Virus record (IMG/VR): IMGVR_UViG_3300043409_000400
Coordinates: 1 to 20,131 of that record
Source: a virus
Reading direction: 5' to 3' (one strand)
DNA length: 20,131 nt
Shown piece by piece: positions 1 to 18,988 of this stretch (position 1 is its first letter; every line of letters begins with the position of its first letter). The notes below the pieces were generated by a model. The model worked only from the letters and a program-made list of their open reading frames with translations. It did not search any database and was not told the DNA's origin. The position numbers and the translations under genes are program-made.

Positions 1-1459
1 CTACACCAATTTCAGTCAAACGGGTATCAACCGAACCCGTATAAGTTGCTAATGTACTATTTTGAGTTAATTGTGAACCACTAAATGTATTTATATTTGT
101 TATTGAAACTCCTTGTGAGTCATTTGTTGTTTTTGCAGTTGATGCAGAAGCTATTAAACTTCCACTAACTACTCCAATTTCAGTTAATTGAGTTAATACC
201 GAAGAACTGAATGATTCAATGCTAGTTAATCTACTTAATGTAGAAGCACTAAATGAGTTTAAGTTTGTTATAGAAACTCCAACACCTGCTCCAACATTTG
301 CAGTAATTGCTGCTAATGATGCTGAAACTGAACCACTATAATCGGTAAATCCGTTTACTTGGGTTAAAAGTATTTGTTGAGATGCAGTAACAAGATTGTC
401 ACCACCCAATAATGCTACTTTACTTTCAGAACCTACCTTACCAGCTTTCCAGTAATCGGTAGTTACATCCCAAAGTAAAGAACCGGAAGTAGTTGATGCA
501 CCTGTTGCATCTCTTACTATCAAACCACCATCAGATGTTCCTGCAGCGTTTAATGTTAATATATTATCTCCTAAGTTGATTGTTGTTGAATCAACAATAG
601 TTTGAGTACCTTGTACGAATAAATTACCTTTAACGGTCGTATCACCATTGAATGTTACATTAACACCACTTGCAGTAAACGCAGTTTTTAATGAAGATGT
701 ATATGAGTTTAATTCTGTAAGTGAAGCGTTTGTACTTGCACTAAATGAATTTAAGTTTGTTATTGAAACACCTTGTGAGTCATTTGTCGTTTTAGCAGTT
801 GATGCTGATGCTATTAAACTACCACTTACTACACCAATTTCGGTAAATCTAGTTTCTGCTGATTGAGTAAATGAATTTAATGCAGTTGTAGATGTATTTG
901 AACTCGTATAACTATTCAATGCATCTATACTTGTTTGTTGAGATGCAGAAGAACTATTTAAAGCCGTAATTGAAGTATTTACACTTGCAGAAGTTGATTC
1001 TAAATTAGTTAATCTAATAAGTGTAGAACCACTAAATGTATTTAATGCCGCTACTGCTACTCCAATACTACCACCACCAATTGATGCAGATAATGCACTT
1101 ATTGATGCGGAAACCGAAGAACTAAAATTACTAATGTTACCTGTTAAATCAGGAATACTATTTGCACCTTCACCTAATAAATATAATGTAGAACTACCAC
1201 TTGCGTAGTAAGGAACTCCATTTAACATTCCATTATAAGTTCCCGCTGCAAATGTATTTGGTGCGTTAGCACCTACCAAAACTCTATTTACGGCTTGCAC
1301 TCGTCCGTTTTCAGGAACTGCAAATACAATTGATGCCCCATTTGTTACTGATAGGTTAGATGAGCCCGATGCTATTACAATTTCACCTTTTTGTAAAGAT
1401 GCCGTTACAGCCGATAGGGATTCTAAACTACCCCTTCTGTGTTTAATGATTTGTGCCAT
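1..1459 (-). CDS. Long tail-fibre-type protein, 3' end beyond the window
   Basis: The reading frame opens with ATG at 1459 (MAQIIKHRRGSLESL) and stays open for 486 codons to the left edge, so the C-terminus is missing. Residues 1 to about 100 form a non-repetitive head domain with a beta-rich, Gly/Asn-rich composition, probably the virion-attachment part. It is followed by Ser/Thr/Asn-rich repeats of the type LNSFSAS, LTEIGVVSGS and TNLESTSAS. Residues about 268-352 form a distinct beta domain (GNLFVQGTQTIVDS, then SGSLLWDVTTDYW) that I recognise from structural proteins of T4-like phages. The repeats then resume, and a block of about 36 residues (205-240) recurs at 425-460. The repeats suggest a fibrous trimer that contacts the host. 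It is the last visible gene of the fibre series and is preceded by a 102-bp gap with a TATTTATA motif. Fibre class is fairly sure; receptor and exact position on the virion are unknown. Confidence 0.8.
   Translation of the reverse strand, partial: MAQIIKHRRGSLESLSAVTASLQKGEIVIASGSSNLSVTNGASIVFAVPENGRVQAVNRVLVGANAPNTFAAGTYNGMLNGVPYYASGSSTLYLLGEGANSIPDLTGNISNFSSSVSASISALSASIGGGSIGVAVAALNTFSGSTLIRLTNLESTSASVNTSITALNSSSASQQTSIDALNSYTSSNTSTTALNSFTQSAETRFTEIGVVSGSLIASASTAKTTNDSQGVSITNLNSFSASTNASLTELNSYTSSLKTAFTASGVNVTFNGDTTVKGNLFVQGTQTIVDSTTINLGDNILTLNAAGTSDGGLIVRDATGASTTSGSLLWDVTTDYWKAGKVGSESKVALLGGDNLVTASQQILLTQVNGFTDYSGSVSASLAAITANVGAGVGVSITNLNSFSASTLSRLTSIESFSSSVLTQLTEIGVVSGSLIASASTAKTTNDSQGVSITNINTFSGSQLTQNSTLATYTGSVDTRLTEIGV
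81..847 (-). repeat. In-frame direct repeat, two ~107-bp copies 660 bp apart
   Basis: Bases 81-187 and 741-847 are near-identical and exactly 660 bp (220 codons) apart inside the fibre gene. Both encode LTEIGVVSGSLIASASTAKT followed by TNDSQGVSITN. The start of a third copy (LTEIGV) is cut by the left edge at bases 1-18. The repeat flanks the distinct beta domain, so domain plus repeat looks like a duplicated or exchangeable cassette. Confidence 0.85.
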
Positions 1460-1492
1460 ATTTAGTTTTTGATTATTCTGTGTTATTCAATC

Positions 1493-1500
1493 TATAAATA
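1493..1500 (-). promoter_or_regulatory. TATTTATA motif before the long fibre gene
   Basis: On the coding (minus) strand this reads TATTTATAG and lies 33 nt before the ATG at 1459, in a 102-bp AT-rich gap. It is one of five copies found in gaps just before gene starts. A phage promoter element is a guess. It is the reverse complement of the T4 late-promoter core, so it is not simply that core in the expected orientation. The rest of the gap (1460-1561) holds only A/T tracts and a weak inverted repeat. Confidence 0.35.
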
Positions 1501-1561
1501 TCTTTTTTTTTATCAAACTGATTGTAAATTTGAATTAAATACAATATATTTTTTTATTACA

Positions 1562-1933
1562 TTACCATTCACCCTGATCAATGATTTGAGATGATGTTTG
1601 GTATAATTCTATATCAGTTGCAAAACTGTTATCTAATGAAGAACTGAATGATTCCAAATTAGTTAATCTAGTATTTACCGATGATGAAATATTAAGTGTA
1701 TTTGCCGAACTTGCACTAATTTGAGTATTAATAGATGAACTAAATCCAGCAAAATTAGTAGTTTGTAAAATATTAACCTGAACTGATGATGATATTATTC
1801 CATCAGGCAAAGTAGCTGCAATATTACCCTGTACAATAGCAATTACCGATTGTGAAAAATCAGTACCAATAGCTGCAGATGTTTGTAATGCAGAACCACT
1901 TTCTATTTGTTTTAATCTTATTAACGTTGCCAT
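1562..1933 (-). CDS. Short fibre-like protein with SSS repeats
   Basis: A complete 123-residue protein. Its opening (MATLIRLKQIESGSALQTS) is of the kind that begins many phage fibre and tail-appendage proteins. The rest consists of degenerate Ser-rich repeats (IISSSVQVN, FSSSINTQI, ISSSVNTRL, FSSSLDNSF) and ends in a polar tail with a final Trp. It has no distinct C-terminal receptor-binding domain, so it may be an adaptor or shaft segment for its neighbours, or the remnant of a longer fibre. It lies between two longer fibre genes with the same repeat type. The ATG is only 4 nt beyond a TATTTATA motif, with AGGAT directly before it. Fibre-related nature is likely; the specific role is unknown. 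Confidence 0.7.
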   Translation of the reverse strand: MATLIRLKQIESGSALQTSAAIGTDFSQSVIAIVQGNIAATLPDGIISSSVQVNILQTTNFAGFSSSINTQISASSANTLNISSSVNTRLTNLESFSSSLDNSFATDIELYQTSSQIIDQGEW

Positions 1934-1937
1934 ATCC

Positions 1938-1945
1938 TATAAATA
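1938..1945 (-). promoter_or_regulatory. TATTTATA motif before the short fibre gene
   Basis: TATTTATAGGAT is followed at once by ATG on the minus strand, in a 15-bp gap between two fibre genes. The spacing to the start (4 nt) is too short for a -10 element with an untranslated leader. Here the motif either acts at the mRNA level or would give a leaderless or internally started transcript. Function uncertain. Confidence 0.25.
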
Positions 1946-1948
1946 TCG

Positions 1949-3169
1949 TTAAGATAGTTTTATATATCCGTAATTAATTGTTTGAGTTGTTCCACTATTA
2001 TTTGTTATACCAAACTTAAATACATTTGAAGTATTTGGTGCGTATGATGTTGGAGAGGATATGAGAGTATTAGTTGTACCTATAATTTGGTCAGGCATTG
2101 TAGTTAAAACTAATGCATTACCCGGTGTGTAATACCAACCATATTGAGAACCAACTACCGGAACATTGGTATTTGATGTTGTTACAGTTGCGTTCCAAGT
2201 TATAATACCATTTGGAATATTACCATTTACCCACATTGTATATGAAGCACCGGCTTCTACTGTAAAACTTTGTGTAGATGCTCCTGCTGGTACTGACCAA
2301 GTTTCAGTTGTTTTTGATGGAAACGATGTTGTTAATTGAGTTGAACCACTAATTAAACCTGATGGTAATTGTGCAGAACCACTTATTACACCATCTCCAC
2401 CCGTATTCAAATATCTTGTATCTAATGAAGATGTTAATTGAGAAGAACCACTAATAGTTCCGGCCGGTATTGCTGCTGAAGAACTTATAAATCCAAATGC
2501 AGTTATTTGTGCAGATGAACTCAATAAATTTGAAGGTAATGGTTGAACACTACCACTCAATGTATATCTTGTATCGTATGATGATGTTAATTGAGATGAA
2601 GAACTTATTGCTCCACTTAAACTTGTCAAAAACGAACCCGTTTCACTTTCAGTAATCCAACTTCCACTTACACTTTCAATTGCGTTTAATCTACTTACTA
2701 ATGATGATGTAGATTGTGATGCAGTATATTCGTTAAAAGATGATGTTTGTAATCTTGCACTTATTCCGTTTGTAAATGCGGTATTTAATGATGATTGTGA
2801 AGATGTGAATGAATTTAAAGAAGTTATATCAGTATGTGATGAACTTATAAATCCAAAATTTGATATTTGTGTTGATGAACTAATTGTTCCTATCGGTATA
2901 GTTGTAGATGAACTTACAAACCCCAATCCAGTTATTTGTGCAGATGAACTTATTACACTTCTACCTTTACTTTCAAACGAAGATGTTACGGATTCCAAAG
3001 ATAATAGTCTATCCCTATCCAATATATTTACTCTTGAAGTAACTGCATCTGCTAATGTATCCAACTCAATTTTATAAGTCGTTCCACCATCTACACCAAC
3101 GATTGTAGTATCTAATGATGCGGAAGCTAATGCCGTTAATTCTGATATTCGTTTTCTTACGTTTGCCAT
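1949..3169 (-). CDS. Tail-fibre-type protein with ISSSAQI repeats and a C-terminal beta domain
   Basis: A 406-residue protein in three parts. Residues 1-60 start MANVRKRISELTAL and include GVDGGTTYKIELD, an N-terminal pattern common in phage fibres that dock onto tails. Residues about 71-282 hold repeated VISSSAQITGLGF, TISSSTQISNFGF, LLSSSAQITAFGF and similar units, each roughly 20-25 residues, typical of a fibrous shaft. Residues about 288-406 are non-repetitive (SYTMWVNGNIPNGIITW, GSQYGWYYTPGNALVL) and look like a beta-rich tip or capping domain that I have seen at the C-termini of phage structural proteins. It follows the 222-residue appendage gene with one spare base and is read in the same direction as the rest. 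Host recognition is the likely role. Fibre assignment is good; there is no evidence for a specific receptor. Confidence 0.8.
   Translation of the reverse strand: MANVRKRISELTALASASLDTTIVGVDGGTTYKIELDTLADAVTSRVNILDRDRLLSLESVTSSFESKGRSVISSSAQITGLGFVSSSTTIPIGTISSSTQISNFGFISSSHTDITSLNSFTSSQSSLNTAFTNGISARLQTSSFNEYTASQSTSSLVSRLNAIESVSGSWITESETGSFLTSLSGAISSSSQLTSSYDTRYTLSGSVQPLPSNLLSSSAQITAFGFISSSAAIPAGTISGSSQLTSSLDTRYLNTGGDGVISGSAQLPSGLISGSTQLTTSFPSKTTETWSVPAGASTQSFTVEAGASYTMWVNGNIPNGIITWNATVTTSNTNVPVVGSQYGWYYTPGNALVLTTMPDQIIGTTNTLISSPTSYAPNTSNVFKFGITNNSGTTQTINYGYIKLS
2478..2950 (-). repeat. Direct repeats encoding the ISSSAQI shaft units
   Basis: Near-identical tracts occur at 2478-2521 and 2907-2950, with a more diverged copy at 2838-2880. 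They encode the (A/T)QI-x-x-(F/L)GF-(I/V)SSS element of the fibre shaft. Copies 69 bp and 429 bp apart are all in frame (23 and 143 codons), so the gene could expand or contract by recombination without losing its frame. Confidence 0.75.
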
Positions 3170-7028: not shown

Positions 7029-8642
7029 TTAAAGAGTTTCTAAACCTTCAATTAATACTTTACCGTAAAATTCTGGTCTTACTAATTTCTTAGCGTAACG
7101 AGTCATAACACCACGTCTTGGAGTGAAGTTAGTTGGGTCGTACACTAATGGAGTCATAATCAATGGTACATACGGTGCGTAAACTGCTCCGGTTTCGAAG
7201 AAGTTAGAACCTTTGAATCCCATTAAGATAACGTTCTCAGTCATATACGGGTTTTTGTAAACATCGTATCTATTTGAGATTTGTCCAATGTTACTTACAC
7301 CTGCTGCGAATGATAAAGCGTCTTTCCCTGGATTAGCAGAGAATCCGTTCATTGATTCTAAGATAGTTGCAACGTTTGGAGAAACTACTACGAAATTAGC
7401 TCCACCTCTCATTGTTAATTGGTGAATTTTGTTAGATACTTTTTGTAATTTAATACCCAAAGTCTGGAACCAAGTGTTCTTTTGGTATGCAGAAGCTGCA
7501 GCCGCATTAGAATCAATTGAGAAACCAGCACCATTCCAATCATATCCAACTCTAGCTGACCAATATTCAGTTGTGAAAGCATTTTGTTGTAACATTTCTA
7601 AGATTTCTAAGTCGATTTCTAAAGAGATGTATTCAGACAACATTTGAGTTAATTCCGCTTCTGCGTCAACAGAGTGGTATGCGTTCAAATCTTGCGCCAA
7701 TTCAGGAGTCCAAATTGCTTTTAACTTACGAGTTTTAGCAACGATTGGCTCTGATTTCAATTCTAATTCGATTTCTGGAATTGCCAAGTTATTACCTCTA
7801 TCTTCGAAATCACCACGAGAGATATCGGTAGGTTGTACGTGATATACCAAAGTAGCAGCCTGTACACCAGATGAACCTGTACCTGTTAGGTTTGCAACAA
7901 ATTCAACATTAGTACCATTCTTAGTAACATATTGAGGGTAGAAAACTATGTTAGAACCTGATGCTAAAGTTAATTCAAATGCTCTAACACCATTATTATC
8001 AGAATCAGCTGGCAAAGGAACACTTATTTTCTTTAGAGTGTTAGCTGCAAAAGATGTAGAAACAGCCGAAATAGATAAATCATAATCAATATCTGCTAAA
8101 GAAGCAGATGCAATTGTTACTGCTGATGCAGAAGAAGCGTTATTGATTGTGTATCCAAATCTACCTGCACCATACAAACCACCTGTTGTAGCTTGAGTAG
8201 AACCTAATTTATTTCCTGCTGGAGATAAAGAATCTTTACCAAACTCACCACCTGTACCAAACAAAGAAGAACCAGTAAAGTCAGGGTTACCCGCTGGGTT
8301 AGTACCATATTTGAAGTCCATGTAGAAAATAAGACCTGATGGTAAGTTCATTGGTTGAACCGAAACGAATTCTTTCGCTGCGATAGAACCGAATACTCTT
8401 CTTACCAATGGAAGTGCAACACCTGCCCATTCTTCCGAACCACCTGATGTACCAGTTCTGGTAGCTTCATCCAATAATTGTTTAGCCTGATTTTCTAGCA
8501 ATACTGCCATACCATGCTTAGTTGTTTCTGATTTTACTCCTTCAAGCAAACCAGTTTTTTCCCATTTTGCTTTCAAACCTCTAGTTTGCTCAAGCATGAC
8601 ACTCTGTGGGTTATTGCCATTCATTAATTTTTGTAAGTCCAT
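7029..8642 (-). CDS. gp23: Major capsid protein, T4 gp23-like
   Basis: A 537-residue protein, near T4 gp23 in length (521), with the HK97-type fold expected of this family. The N-terminus aligns with T4: LLENQAKQLLDEATRTG (residues 48-64) sits opposite the T4 propeptide end, and residues 76-105, with VRRVF, VSVQPMNLPSG and then FYMDFKYG, match the T4 VRRAIPN and CGVQPMNSPTG region. The site LDE/A (E59/A60) is at the place where the T4 prohead protease cuts (E65/A66), so a mature form starting at A60 is predicted. Further along, DFEDRGNNLAIPEIELEL and ELAQDLNAYHSVDAEAEL resemble family positions, and the C-terminus has RYAKKLVRPEFYGKVLIEGL. It follows the scaffold gene after 31 bp and is closed by a strong terminator, as expected for the most abundant virion protein. 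No Shine-Dalgarno sequence is visible. Confidence 0.96.
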   Translation of the reverse strand: MDLQKLMNGNNPQSVMLEQTRGLKAKWEKTGLLEGVKSETTKHGMAVLLENQAKQLLDEATRTGTSGGSEEWAGVALPLVRRVFGSIAAKEFVSVQPMNLPSGLIFYMDFKYGTNPAGNPDFTGSSLFGTGGEFGKDSLSPAGNKLGSTQATTGGLYGAGRFGYTINNASSASAVTIASASLADIDYDLSISAVSTSFAANTLKKISVPLPADSDNNGVRAFELTLASGSNIVFYPQYVTKNGTNVEFVANLTGTGSSGVQAATLVYHVQPTDISRGDFEDRGNNLAIPEIELELKSEPIVAKTRKLKAIWTPELAQDLNAYHSVDAEAELTQMLSEYISLEIDLEILEMLQQNAFTTEYWSARVGYDWNGAGFSIDSNAAAASAYQKNTWFQTLGIKLQKVSNKIHQLTMRGGANFVVVSPNVATILESMNGFSANPGKDALSFAAGVSNIGQISNRYDVYKNPYMTENVILMGFKGSNFFETGAVYAPYVPLIMTPLVYDPTNFTPRRGVMTRYAKKLVRPEFYGKVLIEGLETL

Positions 8643-8673: not shown

Positions 8674-9837
8674 TTATTTTAAAATTCCTGCTAATTTTTT
8701 AAATCTATCAGATAATTGAGTATTTTCCACAATTACTTGCTTAGATACAGACGGTTTAGTAGATTTTGTTACCTTACTCGCAATTCCTTCTGAAATTGAT
8801 TTCTTAGCTACTTTGTTAGAGGTTGTAGTATATTTGAAGTTTTCTGCTAATGTAGAATACACCAATTTAACTTCTCTAACTGTTTTTGTTCTATCCAAAG
8901 TTTCAATCACTTTAACTTTTTGTTCGTTAGTCATGTTGTGAGCTCTGAATAATTTGTTTGCGAATAACAATTTAGCGTTAAGTAAATTAACTTCATTGAT
9001 TGTGCTTTGAAGTGATTTAATAGTTTTGTAAGCTTCATTTAATTCTGCAGCTACATCATCATTATTTACTTCTTCACTATCATCAGTCATATCCGATTCC
9101 ATTTCTCTTAAAATTTCTTCTAAATCAATAGTATCATCTTCTACTTCTTCTTCACCTGCTTCACCATACTCTTCACCCATTGCAGGCTCTTCACCCATTG
9201 CAGGCTCTTCTTCGGTTGATTCTTCATCTCCCAATTGTGCTTCCAATTCTCTGATAATAGATTCTAAATCCATATCATCTTCGGTTTCTTCTTCTTCTGA
9301 TCCAGTTACATCATAATCTTCACCACCTTCTTCTTCACCGAAGTTGAAATCGTCTTCTTCATCTTCACCAGACTCATCAGAACCCATTCCATCACCTTCT
9401 AATTCGGCTAATCTTGCTTTTAATTCTGCAATTTCAGCGGAGTTATCAGTGTCTTCTTCTTCACCACCGAAATCAAAATCATCTTCTTCGTTGATGTCTG
9501 CTACTTTTTTGTAATCAGTACCAGCTTGTTCAGGCTTACCACTATCTTTTTTTACACCAACTGATAAATCAGTATCTGCATCCAAAGTTGGTTGTGAACC
9601 AGGTGTTTCAGCATATCCGGCATCTGTTTTTGAACCGATGTCTGATGAACTTAATTCTTCGTCCACTTGTTCTGCATCATCTTCCATTTCTGCTTCTGCT
9701 CTTAATTTTTGTGATAAGATAGATTGTAGTCTTGGTGTAAATGCTTCTTCAAGTGCCAATTTTGCGTTTGCTAAAGCCGTTTCTTTAACTGCTTTGGCAT
9801 CAGCGATTGCTTCTTTCAATAATTTTGAATTTGCCAT
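8674..9837 (-). CDS. gp22: Scaffold / prohead core protein, T4 gp22-like
   Basis: A 387-residue protein directly before the capsid gene, the place of gene 22 in T4. Residues 1-45 are an amphipathic helix (KLLKEAIADAKAV, LALEEAFTPRLQSIL). Residues about 50-260 are highly acidic and of low complexity (EEDDFDFGGEEEDTD, EEPAMGEEPAMGEE). Residues about 265-335 are a helical domain (LNAKLLFANKLFRAHN, EQKVKVIETLDRTKTVREV) of the kind seen in gp22 relatives, and the tail is basic (KKSISEGIASKVTKSTKP). Sites fitting the prohead protease rule are LKE/A (E9), LEE/A (E31) and ISE/G (E350), consistent with a core that is chopped up and lost before packaging. It is longer than T4 gp22 (269), mainly through the acidic centre. 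AAGGA 5 nt before the ATG is the clearest Shine-Dalgarno sequence in the window. It has its own leader and no upstream readthrough. Confidence 0.85.
   Translation of the reverse strand: MANSKLLKEAIADAKAVKETALANAKLALEEAFTPRLQSILSQKLRAEAEMEDDAEQVDEELSSSDIGSKTDAGYAETPGSQPTLDADTDLSVGVKKDSGKPEQAGTDYKKVADINEEDDFDFGGEEEDTDNSAEIAELKARLAELEGDGMGSDESGEDEEDDFNFGEEEGGEDYDVTGSEEEETEDDMDLESIIRELEAQLGDEESTEEEPAMGEEPAMGEEYGEAGEEEVEDDTIDLEEILREMESDMTDDSEEVNNDDVAAELNEAYKTIKSLQSTINEVNLLNAKLLFANKLFRAHNMTNEQKVKVIETLDRTKTVREVKLVYSTLAENFKYTTTSNKVAKKSISEGIASKVTKSTKPSVSKQVIVENTQLSDRFKKLAGILK
9169..9204 (-). repeat. 18-bp tandem repeat in the scaffold gene
   Basis: Two identical 18-bp units (9169-9186 and 9187-9204) encode the doubled EEPAMG hexapeptide in the acidic part of the scaffold. 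The repeat is in frame and could vary in copy number. Confidence 0.85.
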
Positions 9838-10009
9838 TTTTCCTTAAATTTGTTTGTGAAGTTATTTAGAAAGGAACTCCAATGATATTATGTCGATTGT
9901 TCGGTCACACCTTATATCAAAGGGTATTCATTAATCAACTATTTCTAAAAAGTAATCCCATATAGGAATGGGATATTTGATAATAAGTATATAGATTTTT
10001 TAAAAAAGT
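9838..10009 (-). promoter_or_regulatory. Leader region of the scaffold-capsid unit
   Basis: Together with the upstream terminator this is the largest gap in the window (221 bp). It lies after a strong terminator and before the two most highly needed head genes, so it should hold their promoter. I see no certain promoter boxes; TATATACTTATTATC near 9975-9990 is the most A/T-rich candidate. It also holds a 7-bp hairpin (9955-9974) and ends with AAGGA before the scaffold ATG. I see no open reading frame of note in it. Confidence 0.45.
9955..9974 (-). promoter_or_regulatory. Hairpin in the scaffold leader
   Basis: ATCCCAT and ATGGGAT form a perfect 7-bp stem with a 6-nt loop. On the minus strand it is followed by TACTTTTTAG, a weak T-rich tail. 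It could be a second, weaker terminator backing up the one at 10010-10037, or a structural element in the leader mRNA. Confidence 0.4.
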
Positions 10010-10037
10010 AAAAAAAAACCTCAAATTTCTTTGAGGT
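10010..10037 (-). terminator. Intrinsic terminator after the Dps-like gene
   Basis: On the minus strand ACCTCAAA and TTTGAGGT form an 8-bp stem with a GAAA tetraloop, followed by nine T residues. It lies 22 nt after the stop of the Dps-like gene and ends the long portal-to-core run of genes. Confidence 0.93.
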
Positions 10038-10058
10038 GTAAATATTATTTATATATTA

Positions 10059-10430
10059 TTACTGTAAATTGATCAATTTATATTTTGTAGAGTATAATAA
10101 AGTTACAATTGTATCTATATCGTTTTGTAGCCAACTTCTTTGTAGTTTTTCATCTTTTCTTAATTTATCAACTGCTTTACACAATTTTTCAAAATAATTG
10201 ATGATATTTTTTAATTCACAATTCGTATCCAACCCATTAACTGATTGTGGTTTGATTAAACCGTTTTCTCCTTGATATGCTTCTACTAATCCATCTATTA
10301 ACCCACCTATTGAATCGTAATAGTTACCCAATGTTATATGTGCTGAATATGAACCCGCTCCTTTAACTCCCCAATGAAAGGTATGAGCCTGTGTTCTACT
10401 GTGTAATAGTATTGATGCCAATTGTTCCAT
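10059..10430 (-). CDS. Dps/ferritin-like small protein in the head cluster
   Basis: A 123-residue, mainly helical protein. The segment FHWGVKGAGSYSAH (residues 18-31) closely follows the Dps pattern HW-x3-GA-x5-H. Taking E. coli Dps as reference from memory, His51, His63, Asp78 and Glu82 of the inter-subunit ferroxidase site correspond to H19, H31, D46 and E50 here with identical spacing (12, 15 and 4); the Asp67 position is Gly35. Dps proteins are about 165 residues, so this is a shortened form that may keep only the four-helix core. Such proteins bind and oxidise iron or protect DNA; some small phage proteins of this kind are annotated only as unknown. The ATG shares a base with the previous stop (TAATG), and a strong terminator follows, so it is the last gene of the core operon. 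Whether it binds iron, enters the head or has only a structural role is unknown. Confidence 0.6.
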   Translation of the reverse strand: MEQLASILLHSRTQAHTFHWGVKGAGSYSAHITLGNYYDSIGGLIDGLVEAYQGENGLIKPQSVNGLDTNCELKNIINYFEKLCKAVDKLRKDEKLQRSWLQNDIDTIVTLLYSTKYKLINLQ

Positions 10431-10861
10431 TATTTTTTAGATTTTTTATTTTCTCTTAATCCCAATCTTTGTTTCATAACATCTTCTGATAAATCTGCTA
10501 TTTCAAAGTATCTTCCTAAAACGTGTCCCATATCTTCATATAGAGCTTCTAATCGTTGTTGTTGAGATTTTGCTTCTACTGCTTCTTTTTCAAAACCTGA
10601 TTGTAACTTTTTTAATTCGTTCATATTACGTTTGATTGTAACTCTATCGAACCAATCACCACCTTCTCTCAAAGTGTATTCTTGTGCAGCATCTGCAATT
10701 CCACCCAATGTTTCTGCAATTTGCATAATATCGGATTTTCTACTCATTCCTTCTCTATGCTGATTGTATGTTGAAATTATTTCTAAAAAATGCCTCTTTA
10801 TTTCCGTAGGTAATTGCTTGAACTCTTCGGTTTCTTTTAAAATATCCTTTAATCGTATCAT
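10430..10861 (-). CDS. Helical protein with capsid-targeting-like N-terminus
   Basis: I place the start at ATG 10861 (MIRLKDILKETEEFKQ, 143 residues), one base after the preceding stop (TAA-A-ATG). The frame is open further, to a GTG at 10912, but that would overlap the previous gene by 50 bp and add a poor Tyr/Ile/Asn-rich leader. The protein is almost wholly helical and charged, with a likely coiled coil at about residues 70-115 (IKRNMNELKKLQSGFEKEAV, KSQQQRLEALYEDMGHVL) and a basic tail (LRENKKSKK). The opening MIRLKDILKE resembles the short capsid-targeting leaders of T4 internal head proteins, which end in a protease site. It lies between protease and scaffold genes. A prohead core or internal protein is likely; no named family is recognised. 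Confidence 0.6.
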   Translation of the reverse strand: MIRLKDILKETEEFKQLPTEIKRHFLEIISTYNQHREGMSRKSDIMQIAETLGGIADAAQEYTLREGGDWFDRVTIKRNMNELKKLQSGFEKEAVEAKSQQQRLEALYEDMGHVLGRYFEIADLSEDVMKQRLGLRENKKSKK

Positions 10862-10862
10862 T

Positions 10863-11213
10863 TTATTGTTTATTATTATGTAATAGTAATTCACCCAATA
10901 CTTCAATCTCACCCACTAATCGTTGAAATCCAATTTCCGATAAATCCATATTTTTGATTTTATCACAAAATTCGTTTGATTTTGTATCCAACAATTTTTT
11001 TGTTCTTTCAATATTAAAATTACCATCAACTGCATTTTGATAATAAGGAAGTTTAACTACAAAATGGTGATACGTTAATATGGCAGGACCACCTTTTTCT
11101 TTTGCATCATTTGTTATTTTAGTTGCACCTTGCAGTCTTTTAGAAACAAATTGCGTAAATGTTAAATTAGTAGCAATGTTTTCTTTTTTTAATAAAGATT
11201 TTAAATGCAACAT
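10863..11213 (-). CDS. Small helical protein of the prohead core region
   Basis: A 116-residue protein without a family I recognise. It begins MLHLKSLLKKEN, again a short amphipathic Leu/Lys leader ending in Glu like its neighbours. Two helices follow (LTFTQFVSKRLQGATKITND and MDLSEIGFQRLVGEIEVLGE) with a more polar centre (TYHHFVVKLPYYQNAVDG). A single Cys (FCDKIKN) and no metal-binding pattern are seen. It starts 4 nt after the previous stop, and the next gene begins 1 nt after its own stop, so it is part of a tightly coupled run. The location between protease and scaffold suggests a core or internal head protein. This is inference from context. Confidence 0.5.
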   Translation of the reverse strand: MLHLKSLLKKENIATNLTFTQFVSKRLQGATKITNDAKEKGGPAILTYHHFVVKLPYYQNAVDGNFNIERTKKLLDTKSNEFCDKIKNMDLSEIGFQRLVGEIEVLGELLLHNNKQ

Positions 11214-11217
11214 TTTT

Positions 11218-11502
11218 TTACTTTTTTAAAACACCTGATTTTTTAATCTTAGCAATCGCCATCATCAATTGTTGTCTATCCATTCCCAATGCATCAATTA
11301 TTCTTGCAACAATCAATTGCTCTTTTTTCTTCGGTAAACTATATCCTTTGATTTGATCAACCAGTTTTCCTAAAAATCTGTCAACTTGCGGTGGTAATGA
11401 AACATCCATATCCTCTAATTCTTCTTTTTGAATTCGGTTTGTCACATTCTCTTTCTTTAAAGAACCCATGCTTATGGGAATAAATTGTGTTAATTTTGCC
11501 AT
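11218..11502 (-). CDS. Small basic protein of the prohead core region
   Basis: A 94-residue, Lys-rich protein that I do not recognise. After a short N-terminal stretch (MAKLTQFIPISMGSLKKEN) it has helices around EELEDMDVSLPPQVDRFLGK and KKKEQLIVARIIDALGM, ending in DRQQLMMAIAKIKKSGVLKK. The C-terminal half has the look of a small helical bundle or winged-helix-like domain, but there is no clear DNA-binding signature. It starts 7 nt after the protease stop. By position it could be a counterpart of the small T4 core proteins gp67/gp68, though these lie before gene 21 in T4. Function unknown. Confidence 0.5.
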   Translation of the reverse strand: MAKLTQFIPISMGSLKKENVTNRIQKEELEDMDVSLPPQVDRFLGKLVDQIKGYSLPKKKEQLIVARIIDALGMDRQQLMMAIAKIKKSGVLKK

Positions 11503-11509
11503 TTTTATT

Positions 11510-12100
11510 TTAGTTTAATTCAATTATAATTTCTCTCATAAGGTTTTGCGATTTACACCACTTACCACATTCATCCGCTAACTTAGCCCACTGTTTTGAT
11601 TCGTTTACAGGTGCCATAAATGCACCGTGTGTAGATGGATTTGATACAAAATCCCAACCAACTAATTCAAAATCCTCCTGAACCATCACTGTACCATCTG
11701 TCATTTCTTTAACAGAACCCAATCCCCTCGATGATATACCTAAACGGATATTATTTTTTAAAAGTTCTTTAAGAATGTTTCCAGATGGAGTAGAAAGAAT
11801 TTCAACCGAACCCATTACATCTTCACCTTCCCACCAAATTTCTCTAATGTTGTGTGAAACATTTTTCAAATTAATTACAGGAGAATCCGGATGATCTAAT
11901 TCACCCAATGCTCTTCTTTCCTTAATAAGTTGTGCGTATTTTTTGCATTCTCTTTCTAAAATTTCTTTAGGATATCTTCTATTATTTTGATTAGGGGCAC
12001 CTGCTCTTTGAAGCACACCTTTAACAAGGAAAGTTCCATTTTCTTCCTGTTGAAGTTTTGCTTCAAACAAATGGGTCTCTATTAATAATCCTTTATTCAT
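11510..12100 (-). CDS. gp21: Prohead core protease, T4 gp21-like
   Basis: A 196-residue serine protease of the herpesvirus-assemblin-like group that matures T4-type proheads by cutting after (L/I)-x-E. The N-terminal strand TFLVKGVLQRAGAPNQNNRR leads to the family motif YPKEILERE. The catalytic His is in RALGELDHP (H70). The catalytic Ser is in RLGISSRGLGSV (S123 or S124). The segment FELVGWDFVSNPSTHGAFM (residues 144-162) is also typical. The length is close to T4 gp21 (212). The C-terminal part (KLADECGKWCKSQNLM) has two Cys and may be removed by self-cleavage. Its targets are in the same window: the capsid protein and the scaffold. It shares one base with the preceding stop (TAATG). The fold and role are secure; which Ser is the nucleophile is not settled here. 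Confidence 0.94.
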   Translation of the reverse strand: MNKGLLIETHLFEAKLQQEENGTFLVKGVLQRAGAPNQNNRRYPKEILERECKKYAQLIKERRALGELDHPDSPVINLKNVSHNIREIWWEGEDVMGSVEILSTPSGNILKELLKNNIRLGISSRGLGSVKEMTDGTVMVQEDFELVGWDFVSNPSTHGAFMAPVNESKQWAKLADECGKWCKSQNLMREIIIELN

Positions 12101-14575: not shown

Positions 14576-16321
14576 TTACTTTTTTGTTAAATCTTCTGTT
14601 AAAATAGTTTTTTTGTTACCATTCATATCTTTAAAAATCTCATCATAGTTGGCTCTGGGTTTGTATTTTACGGATCCTTCCTTTTGTTTAAGTGTTTTAA
14701 TTCCTAATGGATCCCTTCCTTCCGGATGGTCATCTTTCCCATATCTAACTGGATCTTTAGGCCTTCCTACTTTACCATCCTCTTCTAATTCGGATTTAAT
14801 TCTTTGTATTTCTTCTTCTACATTAGTCTGTCCCTCTACACCGGTTTCGTTTGCAGGATCAGTACCCTGTGTTTCAATTGATGTTAATCTGAATTGTTGT
14901 TTAGTATCCTCCAATACCTGCAACGTTAATTCATCTTGCTCATCATCTGCTAATCCCATAATAGAATCATACATCCATTTTTTAGAGAACATTTTTGTTT
15001 GTTGCATTTGTTGAATCAACTGCACTTTTGAATTATATAATTCAACTTTTTCTTGTTCGTATATTTTTGATGGTATTGTTAATTCTAATGAGAAATCTGT
15101 TAAACGGTCATCGGTAACACCCTGTGCGTACAAATGAATTATCGCAATTTTGGTTAATTCCGAAATAAGTACTCTTTGTATCCTTTCAACAGTTTTTGCA
15201 AAACGAATATCTTGTGATGCTAGAGTTGCTTTACCATTCGCATCTTCCTCATATCCTAAATATGCTTTAGGTATTTTCAAAGATGCCATCATTTTACCTT
15301 TTAAATAATTAAGGTCATCAATCATATTATATTCTAATCCTTTAAGAGTATCAATGGATGTACCATTATCACTACCCCTTACTGGCATATAATAATCTTC
15401 AATAAGATTTTGAATATTGTATTTTAAGTTATACTCACCGGTTCTTTCATCAACAAATGGAACTTTTTTAGAATTGTTGATAATTTTTTGCATATAATTA
15501 TCCACTTCATTTGGTGGGATATTACCAACATCTACTTTAAAAATTCTCTTTTCAGGAGCTCTCATTACTCTATGGATTAACATCGCATCTTCCATCAACA
15601 TTAATTGTTTCCAAACTCTTCTACCACCTTCAATCATTGATTTTCCGTAAGGAAGAAAGTTTGAGTCTGAATTCAAACGAAAGTGTGCCATCTCATAATT
15701 TTCAAATTCTTTTTTAGCAGATTGAGAAGCTCCTCCATATGGGTTTTGATATGGTGCATATAAGAATTTAACTCTTTGTGGGTTTTCTGGATCAAATTGT
15801 TCCACCCTACTCATCTCATAGCAAGATAGTGGCATAACATTAACAATACCGAGTGTATCTGCCATCTCTAACTGTAAGAAGAAATCACCATACTTAACTA
15901 AATTTCTTGTCCACGGCCATAGATTAAATTCCAAATTTAAAATATCAAAGAAAAGGTTTTCTAAAATTTGTTTTATGTTATCATCGGAGTGGTGTATTTT
16001 TAATACACTACCCATTTCGTTTCTAGCAGTACATTCATCTGCGTATATATCCAATGCGGATGCCAGAATTGGGTCAGTATCCATTGAATCGTAATCCCTA
16101 AATAAATCAATACGAACTTGTTGATACGCCATAGATGATTCGAGGACACCCGAACCGTAGTTTGTGACTTTAAGTTTCATAAACCTATCTACTAGGTTTG
16201 TTGTCATATTCTGATATTCATCAGTATCTATGACTTTAACCCCGCTTGCCGTTTTACGAACTATGGTATTTGTTGAAAATAGTTTTTGTAACCTACTGAA
16301 TACTGATTTATCTACTGCCAT
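14576..16321 (-). CDS. gp20: Portal (connector) protein, T4 gp20-like
   Basis: A 581-residue portal protein, a dodecamer at one capsid vertex through which DNA is packaged and on which prohead assembly starts. Family segments are seen in order: DLFRDYDSMDTDPILASALD (72-91) and EFNLWPWTRNLVKYGDFFLQ (131-150) of the wing; PYGKSMIEGGRRVWKQLMLM (224-243); the hallmark HRVMRAPEKRIFKVDVGNIP (250-269); EDYYMPVRGSDNGTSIDTLKG (308-328); and DDLNYLKGKMMASLKIPKAY (335-354). It is about 57 residues longer than T4 gp20 (524), with an acidic and then charged C-terminal tail (EEEIQRIKSELEEDGK, then HPEGRDPLGIKTLKQK) that probably projects into the head. No Shine-Dalgarno sequence; the ATG follows an A-run. 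It is separated from the upstream Cys-rich gene by a 48-bp A/T gap without a terminator. Identification is secure. Confidence 0.96.
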   Translation of the reverse strand: MAVDKSVFSRLQKLFSTNTIVRKTASGVKVIDTDEYQNMTTNLVDRFMKLKVTNYGSGVLESSMAYQQVRIDLFRDYDSMDTDPILASALDIYADECTARNEMGSVLKIHHSDDNIKQILENLFFDILNLEFNLWPWTRNLVKYGDFFLQLEMADTLGIVNVMPLSCYEMSRVEQFDPENPQRVKFLYAPYQNPYGGASQSAKKEFENYEMAHFRLNSDSNFLPYGKSMIEGGRRVWKQLMLMEDAMLIHRVMRAPEKRIFKVDVGNIPPNEVDNYMQKIINNSKKVPFVDERTGEYNLKYNIQNLIEDYYMPVRGSDNGTSIDTLKGLEYNMIDDLNYLKGKMMASLKIPKAYLGYEEDANGKATLASQDIRFAKTVERIQRVLISELTKIAIIHLYAQGVTDDRLTDFSLELTIPSKIYEQEKVELYNSKVQLIQQMQQTKMFSKKWMYDSIMGLADDEQDELTLQVLEDTKQQFRLTSIETQGTDPANETGVEGQTNVEEEIQRIKSELEEDGKVGRPKDPVRYGKDDHPEGRDPLGIKTLKQKEGSVKYKPRANYDEIFKDMNGNKKTILTEDLTKK

Positions 16322-17380: not shown

Positions 17381-18988
17381 TTAACCAATTAACCAATTTA
17401 AGTTTTCTTTTTCACCTCTACCCAAATCCATTTCATATGGGTTGTTTGCCATATATCCAGTAGATACCATGCCTTCATACTTATTTATATGGGATGCGTT
17501 TAACATACTTTTTGTTAAATCAATACCCTCTTGTCTTAAACGAAGTGCAGTATTTCTTACCCACAACCCAATCCCCAATGCCATAATAAGGTCATCATTA
17601 TACCCTTTCATTGCTTCAGCTTTACCGTTATTCCAAATAAATGTAAACATTTCATCTATCAACCTATTAGAACGAATTAGAATATCTTTATTGTTCATAT
17701 ATGTATCTATTGCAGAAATAATAAGAGGTCTTGTCTTTGTAGTTGTTGAAAATCCAGCCACCATTTGTCTTTCATCTCTGTAAAATTTATTACTCATCTG
17801 TTTTTCAACATCAATATACTTTAAATCATTACTCATATAAAATAAGTTTTGATAACCTCTATCTATGACCTGTTGAATACATGCCCAACCTACGTTTGAG
17901 TTTTCAATTACTAATAATGCAGTATTGTATTCCGTTGCTAATGCAGTTAAAAAGTTTCCAAAATCTTTGGTATCAATTTTACCTCTATATTCCGCAACTT
18001 GCGAACTATCTTCTATATCCAATACCTGCGCAGTTGAATAATCCGCACCATCTCCTCTTGCAACATCGGCTACTACCATATATTGCCTATTGTAATTCGG
18101 ATGTTCCCATACCCAAAGGTTTCCATCAAATCCTCGTTTCTCAACCGGATCCATAACATATGTTTCTTTATACCAGGTTAATAACGCAGGTTGTATTACT
18201 GTATCTCCCGAACCAACAAAATCACAATCACATTCCTGACTAGAACCCTTAACTCCCAAAATACGAGTTTGTTCATCTCTCCATTGTTGATTTCTTTCTG
18301 GGTGCACCGTCCAATGCAAGTTAATACAATTAAATCCGTTTATACCACCTTCACCTGCTACCCAAGTTTTATGGAAAAAATTACCCACACCATTAGGAGT
18401 AGAAAGGATAATAGCAGAACCACCCGTTGATAGGGTTGATTGCGCTGATAACCAAATATCATCAATATCTCTAATGAATGCTGCCTCATCCACAACCAAT
18501 AGTGATAAGGCTTCCGAACGACCTGCATCGGGTGAGGACGCGATTGCCTTCACCTGTGAACCGTTCTTTAATTTTAGTGATAATTTATTATCTTCAACTG
18601 ATGATTGACCACCATCTCTTAGCCACACTGGCAGAAGGTCATGCATTACTCTTACCTTTTCAACTAAATTCTTAGCAACTGTTACTTTAGTCGCAATAAC
18701 CAATGCGTTGAAATCCTGATTAAATATCATTTTCCAAAGAATAAATCCAGCAGAAAGTGTTGATAATCCTAATTGTCGAGATTTTAGAATAATATTAAAA
18801 CGATTGTCTTTGAAATCACTTAAACAATCCTCCTGAAACGAATAAAGGTGAAAGGGTATTTTTCCTCTCACCGGATGTTGTATAATGCAGTATTTTTTCA
18901 TAAAGTAAATGGGGTCACTGCCACACTTACGATATTCTTCTGCTATAATTTGTTTAAGATTTTTTTGTGGTTGCCCTTGAACTACCAT
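17381..18988 (-). CDS. terL: Large terminase subunit (DNA-packaging ATPase/nuclease), T4 gp17-like
   Basis: A 535-residue motor that pumps DNA into the prohead and cuts it at the start and end of packaging. The ATPase half shows the adenine-binding region (HLYSFQEDCLSDF, about 47-59), Walker A NIILKSRQLGLST (65-77), Walker B LSLLVVDEAAF (161-171, D167 and catalytic E168) and coupling motif ILSTPNGVG (194-202). The RNase H-like nuclease half shows three acidic clusters: VVADVARGDGADYS (305-318, D308), LLVIENSNVGW (358-368, E362) and GYNDDLIMALGIG (462-474, D465/D466). It is a little shorter than T4 gp17 (610). Its ATG shares a base with the stop of the membrane-protein gene upstream (TAATG). 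Downstream lie the Cys-rich gene and the portal it docks on. The small terminase subunit is not recognisable in the window. Confidence 0.98.
   Translation of the reverse strand: MVVQGQPQKNLKQIIAEEYRKCGSDPIYFMKKYCIIQHPVRGKIPFHLYSFQEDCLSDFKDNRFNIILKSRQLGLSTLSAGFILWKMIFNQDFNALVIATKVTVAKNLVEKVRVMHDLLPVWLRDGGQSSVEDNKLSLKLKNGSQVKAIASSPDAGRSEALSLLVVDEAAFIRDIDDIWLSAQSTLSTGGSAIILSTPNGVGNFFHKTWVAGEGGINGFNCINLHWTVHPERNQQWRDEQTRILGVKGSSQECDCDFVGSGDTVIQPALLTWYKETYVMDPVEKRGFDGNLWVWEHPNYNRQYMVVADVARGDGADYSTAQVLDIEDSSQVAEYRGKIDTKDFGNFLTALATEYNTALLVIENSNVGWACIQQVIDRGYQNLFYMSNDLKYIDVEKQMSNKFYRDERQMVAGFSTTTKTRPLIISAIDTYMNNKDILIRSNRLIDEMFTFIWNNGKAEAMKGYNDDLIMALGIGLWVRNTALRLRQEGIDLTKSMLNASHINKYEGMVSTGYMANNPYEMDLGRGEKENLNWLIG

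What the first reader, a model, noticed from the sequence alone, without database searches (positions are those of the whole stretch)
10059..10430. Dps/ferritin-like protein encoded inside the phage head-assembly cluster
Four of the five Dps ferroxidase-site residues (as I remember E. coli Dps) match with exact spacing: H19, H31, D46 and E50, with the surrounding HW-x3-GA pattern. The fifth position is Gly35. The gene is translationally coupled to core-region genes and closes that operon before a strong terminator. A DNA-protecting or iron-binding protein made with the head could be packaged, could shield the phage DNA, or could be an old fold re-used in assembly. I cannot tell which.
Basis: partly seen in the sequence, partly recalled or inferred. 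Interest (0 to 1): 0.72.

Follow-up and report, generated by a model that had tools for sequence, protein, structure and literature searches.

The report
Mini-Dps ferritin in phage head operon
A phage gene sitting among the genes that build the virus head encodes a small iron-binding, ferritin-type protein, and some sister phages carry a true ferritin in the same place instead, which suggests that these viruses make an iron-oxidising protein together with, and perhaps inside, their heads.

Summary
The 123-aa ORF (minus strand, 10430-10059) is a DUF5856/PHROG-858 protein. Its profile's best PDB matches are Dps proteins (E 1.4e-6), and AlphaFold gives a four-helix bundle (pLDDT 96) whose top PDB matches are Dps. 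Among 181 distinct relatives from at least five phage lineages, H16, H19, H31, D46 and E50 never vary. Position 35, the Dps Asp, is variable.

It is a Dps-like relative, not a canonical Dps: no BC helix, no basic tail, fifth ligand lost. In the window's lineage it closes the prohead-core operon. Unexpectedly, sister phages carry a classical ferritin with an intact ferroxidase site in the same slot, almost always instead of the mini-Dps. Unrelated freshwater podoviruses place DUF5856 directly after the portal gene. Published virion proteomics list DUF5856 homologues in LIMEstone1, Sajous1 and ValerieMcCarty03/04; I matched the proteins by sequence, ValerieMcCarty04 excepted.

Most likely it is a late-made, head-associated, iron-oxidising mini-Dps. 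Packaging in this phage, oligomerisation and activity are inferred. The family was known as a DUF and a mislabelled "transcriptional regulator"; one earlier paper proposed ferritin in Sajous1 virions. New here: the family-wide metal signature, the head-operon setting and the exchange with true ferritin.

The parts
10059..10430 (-). DUF5856 mini-Dps gene, 123 aa
   Evidence: ORF; PF19174 55.4 bits over cut-off 34.6; PHROG 858 2.4e-17; AF2 pLDDT 96.4 four-helix bundle
10374..10385 (-). codons 16-19, holding invariant H16 and H19 (H19 = Dps H51 position)
   Evidence: 181/181 distinct relatives
10338..10340 (-). codon H31 (Dps H63 position)
   Evidence: 181/181 invariant
10326..10328 (-). codon G35 (Dps D67 position; carboxylate lost in this lineage, G/Q/N/S; E in most Straboviridae members)
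10281..10295 (-). codons 46-50, holding D46 and E50 (Dps D78 and E82 positions)
   Evidence: 181/181 invariant
10018..10037 (-). intrinsic terminator closing the operon
10430..10861 (-). upstream coupled gene g10430 (143 aa from the ATG at 10861; the ORF listing gives a longer GTG start at 10912); unknown function, very conserved
   Evidence: AF2 model poor, pLDDT 48
10863..11213 (-). small core-region gene g10863, function unknown
11218..11502 (-). small core-region gene g11218, function unknown
11510..12100 (-). prohead protease, T4 gp21-type (Peptidase S77)
   Evidence: PF03420 8.9e-32; PHROG 207
8674..9837 (-). acidic presumed scaffold/core protein (gp22 position); assigned from position and composition only
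   Evidence: no family match; syntenic
7029..8642 (-). major capsid protein gp23
   Evidence: PF07068 1.4e-76
14576..16321 (-). portal protein gp20
   Evidence: PF07230 1.3e-70
17381..18988 (-). terminase large subunit
   Evidence: PF03237 5.1e-6

Best explanation
The gene encodes a minimal Dps-like ferritin of the DUF5856 family, made late with the prohead core and most likely carried in the virion. Two subunits pair as in Dps, so that H19, H31 (and perhaps H16) of one subunit and D46, E50 of the other bind iron; the protein oxidises and sequesters Fe(II), sparing packaged or newly replicated phage DNA from Fenton damage. SHOWN: family, Dps-type fold (predicted), invariant metal residues, position and transcriptional setting, replacement by a true ferritin in sister phages, presence of sequence-verified homologues in published virion proteomes. 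INFERRED: dimer or cage formation, ferroxidase activity, packaging in this particular phage, protective benefit.
For: Fold: AF2 pLDDT 96.4, pTM 0.89; all 50 listed PDB matches are Dps or Dps-like entries, TM up to 0.80; profile against PDB, best matches Dps, E 1.4e-6. Residues: H16, H19, H31, D46, E50 in 181/181 distinct relatives, down to 28% identity. Setting: TAATG coupling to a core-region gene and a terminator after the gene; order protease-...-g10430-DPS-scaffold-MCP kept across the lineage. In 61/63 loci found by the neighbour gene and 35/40 distinct loci found by the capsid gene it is in this slot. Exchange: a PF00210 ferritin (1.6e-17; PDB bacterial non-heme ferritin 1.4e-11) takes the same slot in 16 loci, one of which has both genes, with E34, E67, H70, E110, Q142 invariant in 52 sequences bar one gapped row; seven large DPS-type contigs lack PF00210 and six ferritin-bearing contigs (four of this lineage) lack DUF5856. 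Independent head setting: 67/72 freshwater podovirus loci have DUF5856 right after the portal gene. Virion proteomics of homologues: LIMEstone1 ORF78, 28% coverage (PMC3296691); Sajous1 gp217, 10 spectra (PMC10892097); ValerieMcCarty03/04 gp108/gp100, 26/27 spectra against 20/17 for the DNA end protector (PMC13119998). The first two and VMC03 gp108 confirmed as PF19174. Purifying selection, median dN/dS 0.20.
Against: No virion data for this phage. The cited virion preparations contain some non-virion proteins and the counts for this protein are modest. In Straboviridae and Ackermannviridae the gene is not in the head cluster. Dps features are missing: fifth carboxylate, BC helix, basic tail. 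4 of 40 capsid-selected distinct loci have neither DPS nor ferritin in the slot, only a ribosomal S21 gene, and the slot often holds S21 as well, so it could be a general accessory-gene slot. Foldseek E-values to Dps are weak (4e-3) although TM-scores are high.
Confidence: 0.5

Rival explanations
1. Late intracellular protector: an iron-scavenging mini-Dps made with the late genes that protects replicating phage DNA or the dying host from iron and peroxide, but is not a virion component; its place in the operon only sets timing and dose.
For: Late operon position; in Straboviridae a late-promoter-like TATAAATA lies about 350 bp upstream, before rI, in six records; Benler et al. propose host protection for gut-phage DPS (PMC8008677); a co-occurring S21 gene is not a head protein by family.
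Against: Homologues appear in purified virions of three phage groups; repeated head-module placement in unrelated phages.
Confidence: 0.27
2. Structural re-use: the Dps fold serves as a core, scaffold or portal-adjacent assembly protein and metal binding is vestigial.
For: Adjacent to scaffold in one lineage and portal in another; BC helix and fifth ligand missing.
Against: Exactly the metal-ligand residues are invariant in 181 sequences while Trp20 and many other positions vary; replaced by a ferritin of a different family with its own intact site; some lineage members lack both, so it is not an essential assembly part.
Confidence: 0.1
3. Ferrojan-horse iron carrier: iron held by the protein on the tail helps receptor engagement through host iron uptake, as proposed for Sajous1.
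For: Proposed from Sajous1 proteomics (PMC10892097).
Against: The same authors saw no change in tonB or feoB mutants; in this lineage and in podoviruses the gene is with head, not tail, genes.
Confidence: 0.05
4. Transcriptional regulator, as the PHROG and database label 'starvation-inducible transcriptional regulator' says.
For: PHROG 858 annotation.
Against: No DNA-binding domain found; the label probably descends from Dps naming (inference); late expression setting.
Confidence: 0.02

Closest known systems
DUF5856 (PF19174) / PHROG 858, including T4-type rI.-1
   Same: Member by sequence (55.4 bits over cut-off 34.6); all relatives share H16, H19, H31, D46, E50
   Different: No published function found under the DUF name; in T4-type coliphages and Ackermannviridae not in the head cluster; window lineage lacks the position-35 carboxylate that most Straboviridae members keep as Glu
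Bacterial Dps (for example HP-NAP, E. coli Dps)
   Same: Four-helix bundle; H51/H63/D78/E82 equivalents with exact spacing in the window
   Different: 123 aa; no BC helix in the model; no basic tail; D67 equivalent is Gly; Trp52 equivalent not conserved; extra invariant His16
Phage-encoded true Dps (Lactobacillus phages, SU10 CDS67, Gratiaviridae)
   Same: Ferritin-superfamily protein of a phage; SU10 CDS67 (PF00210) also seen in a virion proteome
   Different: Longer PF00210-type proteins; in SU10 and the Lactobacillus phages they lie in middle or replication gene regions
Encapsulins with ferritin-like cargo (EncFtn, Flp, IMEF)
   Same: An HK97-fold shell (gp23-type capsid here) made together with a ferritin-like protein
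   Different: Encapsulins hold no genome and have defined cargo peptides; cargo loading is not shown here
Sajous1 gp217 'Ferritin' / ferrojan horse
   Same: Sequence-verified DUF5856 homologue in virions
   Different: Authors placed it on the tail and proposed receptor use; head-operon synteny here points to the head

Membership tests
DUF5856 (PF19174) | Profile score over the curated cut-off | tested here: met
   55.4 bits against 34.6, E 1.3e-14
Dps | Four-helix ferritin-type bundle, best structural matches Dps | tested here: met
   AF2 helices 2-21, 27-56, 73-90, 99-121; 50 listed PDB matches Dps or Dps-like, TM up to 0.80, E 4e-3 at best
Dps | Inter-subunit ligands H51, H63, D78, E82 | tested here: met
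   H19, H31, D46, E50, 181/181 relatives
Dps | Fifth ligand D67 (Asp/Glu) | tested here: not met
   G35; G/Q/N/S in the lineage; E in 6 of 7 Straboviridae, D in 2 of 13 huge-phage sequences
Dps | BC helix in the B-C connection | tested here: not met
   Residues 57-72 carry no helix in the model
Dps | Basic N- or C-terminal tail for DNA binding (many, not all, Dps) | tested here: not met
   Helix A starts at residue 2, helix D ends at 121 of 123
Dps | Dodecameric cage | not testable with these tools
   Only monomer prediction, no coordinates returned
Dps | Ferroxidase activity and DNA protection | not testable with these tools
   Needs biochemistry
Classical 24-mer ferritin (for the slot gene of L167 and relatives, not the window gene) | PF00210 match and intra-subunit A/B site E17, E50, H53, E94, Q127 | tested here: met
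   PF00210 1.6e-17; E34, E67, H70, E110, Q142 invariant in 52 distinct sequences, E34 missing only in one gapped row
Virion protein | Present in purified particles | not testable with these tools
   Not for the window's phage; homologues yes in three published studies

The most novel reading that the evidence does not exclude
A widespread group of T4-type freshwater phages (and, separately, podoviruses) load their heads with a ferritin-superfamily enzyme, interchangeably mini-Dps or true ferritin, that controls iron around the packaged genome: a viral counterpart, or relative in logic, of ferritin-loaded encapsulins.
Probability: 0.35. Interest if true: 0.85.

Novelty: new variant of a known kind. 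Interest (0 to 1): 0.68.

Why it matters
It gives a testable function to an abundant, mis-named phage family: over 500 annotated phage records, and more than 590 further environmental matches in one scan. It shows two different ferritin families exchanging in one slot of a head operon, which points to iron control as a selected part of making a phage particle. If the protein is packaged, tailed-phage heads and encapsulins would share iron-enzyme cargo, and phage particles could carry or detoxify iron in nature.

Tried and rejected
Searching bacterial genomes for close relatives of the window and podovirus forms: none, none on plasmids. Structure of the coupled upstream gene g10430: pLDDT 48, nothing inferred. 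Neighbours of the huge-phage DUF5856 genes: no informative families. T4 late promoter directly before rI.-1: absent within 130 bp, but TATAAATA lies about 350 bp upstream, before rI, in six records. Paper 7-7-1: 'DPs' there are decoration proteins, not Dps. Counting Dps/ferritin exchanges: capsid tree 6 changes (at least 5 forced by well-supported branches), protease tree 5 (at least 2), g10430 tree 2 (at least 1); I therefore claim exchange, with more than one event likely, but not a number. The ferritin loci were found with a ferritin query, so their share is not a frequency; the capsid-gene scan gives 35 Dps, 1 ferritin, 4 neither of 40 distinct slots. The gp21-type cleavage motif L-V-E at residues 48-50 is the metal-site sequence itself and was not read as a cleavage site.

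Full report
Observation. The ORF lies on the minus strand, 10430 to 10059, 123 aa. Its start overlaps the stop of the upstream gene as TAATG. An 8-bp stem with a T-tract follows it at 10037-10018.

Family and fold. The protein is DUF5856 (PF19174, E 1.3e-14, over the curated cut-off) and PHROG 858, labelled 'starvation-inducible transcriptional regulator'. Alone it aligns without gaps to Dps chains over the metal region (2d5k E 0.0022); a diverse 21-member profile reaches E 1.4e-6 against the PDB with Dps proteins on top. AlphaFold2 with 42 relatives gives pLDDT 96.4 and four helices. Foldseek lists Dps or Dps-like entries in all 50 top PDB rows (TM up to 0.80), with weak E-values of 4e-3 and above.

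Conservation. I gathered relatives from the window's lineage, freshwater podoviruses, huge phages, Straboviridae and Ackermannviridae. In 181 distinct sequences H16, H19, H31, D46 and E50 are invariant, D106 is kept in all but one, and position 35 (Dps D67) is mostly G, Q or N, but Glu in six of seven Straboviridae sequences. Trp20, prominent in the window, is not conserved. In Dps the four shared ligands come from two subunits (established knowledge), so keeping both halves implies at least a dimer (inference). H16, one turn before H19, could replace the missing carboxylate (speculation).

Genomic setting. The window is T4-type: TerL, gp20, S77 protease, gp23. In the lineage the order protease-(small genes)-g10430-DPS-(often S21)-scaffold-MCP is kept; one divergent relative, L089, has DPS before g10430. 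Selecting loci by the neighbour gene g10430, 61 of 63 have DPS. Selecting by the capsid gene, 35 of 40 distinct slots have DPS, one has ferritin and four have only an S21 gene. Cultured relatives by protease, Microcystis phage Mel-JY01 and Flavobacterium phage immuto, have no annotated or detected DUF5856 there. In podoviruses of the ctNMl277 type DUF5856 follows the portal gene immediately in 67 of 72 loci, an independent head-module placement. In T4-type coliphages and Ackermannviridae the gene is elsewhere; in Ackermannviridae a putative late promoter precedes it (annotation of LIMEstone1).

Replacement by true ferritin. L167 lacks DUF5856 but has a 178-aa classical ferritin in the slot (PF00210 1.6e-17; bacterial non-heme ferritin 1.4e-11). 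A scan found 58 loci; 16 belong to this head operon, with the ferritin between g10430 and scaffold wherever both are held, and one (L315) carries both genes side by side. The ferroxidase positions E34, E67, H70, E110 and Q142 are invariant in 52 distinct sequences apart from one gapped row. Seven long DPS contigs (87-209 kb) have no PF00210, and six ferritin contigs (up to 221 kb; four of this lineage) have no DUF5856. None of 50,697 phage records holds this ferritin. Trees of capsid, protease and g10430 need 6, 5 and 2 changes between the two states; the disagreement points to movement of a g10430-ferritin cassette, so the number of events is uncertain. The exchange argues that the slot's product is selected for iron chemistry, not for one particular shape. 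S21 in the same slot is a caution that the slot also takes other cargo.

Virion evidence from papers. [quoted passage not shown] Sajous1 gp217 was found in CsCl virions with 10 spectra and modelled as ferritin (PMC10892097). ValerieMcCarty03/04 'starvation-inducible transcriptional regulator' gave 26/27 spectra, above the authors' cut-off of 15 (PMC13119998). I verified LIMEstone1 ORF78, Sajous1 gp217 and VMC03 gp108 as DUF5856. These lists contain some non-virion proteins, so each alone is moderate evidence; agreement over three groups is stronger. SU10 CDS67, a PF00210 Dps-domain protein, was also seen, in a preparation with several non-structural proteins.

Mechanism. Best reading: a late, head-associated mini-Dps that oxidises and holds iron, protecting DNA. 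Shown: family, predicted fold, invariant ligands, setting, exchange with ferritin, homologues in virions. Inferred: oligomer, activity, packaging here, benefit. Rivals: late intracellular protection, structural re-use, ferrojan horse (no effect in tonB or feoB mutants).

Novelty. The fold family is known; the Dps-type signature across DUF5856, the head-operon setting in two phage types, and the exchange with a true ferritin were not found in the papers searched. That library lacks most subscription journals.

Noticed in passing
L167:1954-2490; L303-L316, L335; other contexts L317-L359: A phage family of classical ferritins absent from 50,697 annotated phage records; besides the head-operon slot some lie a few genes before TerL and portal (for example L349).
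   Followed up: partly
L181, L370, L401, L428; L300:7155-7382; most DPS loci: A ribosomal protein S21 gene (PF01165) sits in the same slot before the scaffold gene in most relatives (93 DPS+S21 of 133 distinct slots); the window itself has none there.
   Followed up: partly
BFVD A0A6J7XDU5, A0A6J7WPK9, A0A6J7WIS1: Proteins of uncultured phages annotated 'prohead protease' (333-763 aa) contain a stretch that matches the mini-Dps model structurally, possibly Dps-protease fusions.
   Followed up: no
BFVD A0A481ZC29 (Pithovirus LCPAC404), A0A7D3V608 (Fadolivirus): Giant-virus proteins of 115-129 aa match the mini-Dps model (TM about 0.74-0.86, 19-23% identity).
   Followed up: no
window 10010-10420 against L046: In the closest sister contig the flanking DNA is mostly 94-99% identical but the DPS block only 72-78%, a local allelic exchange; the major capsid gene shows a similar dip near 7800-8200.
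   Followed up: partly
L122 (LIMEstone1) ORF80-82, ORF85: Genes near the DUF5856 homologue encode further unknown virion proteins (one with 23 peptides), a virion gene island outside the head cluster.
   Followed up: no
window 9955-9974: A second hairpin with a partial T-tract lies between the terminator and the scaffold gene.
   Followed up: no
window 2-3169: Tail-fibre-like ORFs made of long Ser-rich repeats (SSS, NSFS motifs).
   Followed up: no
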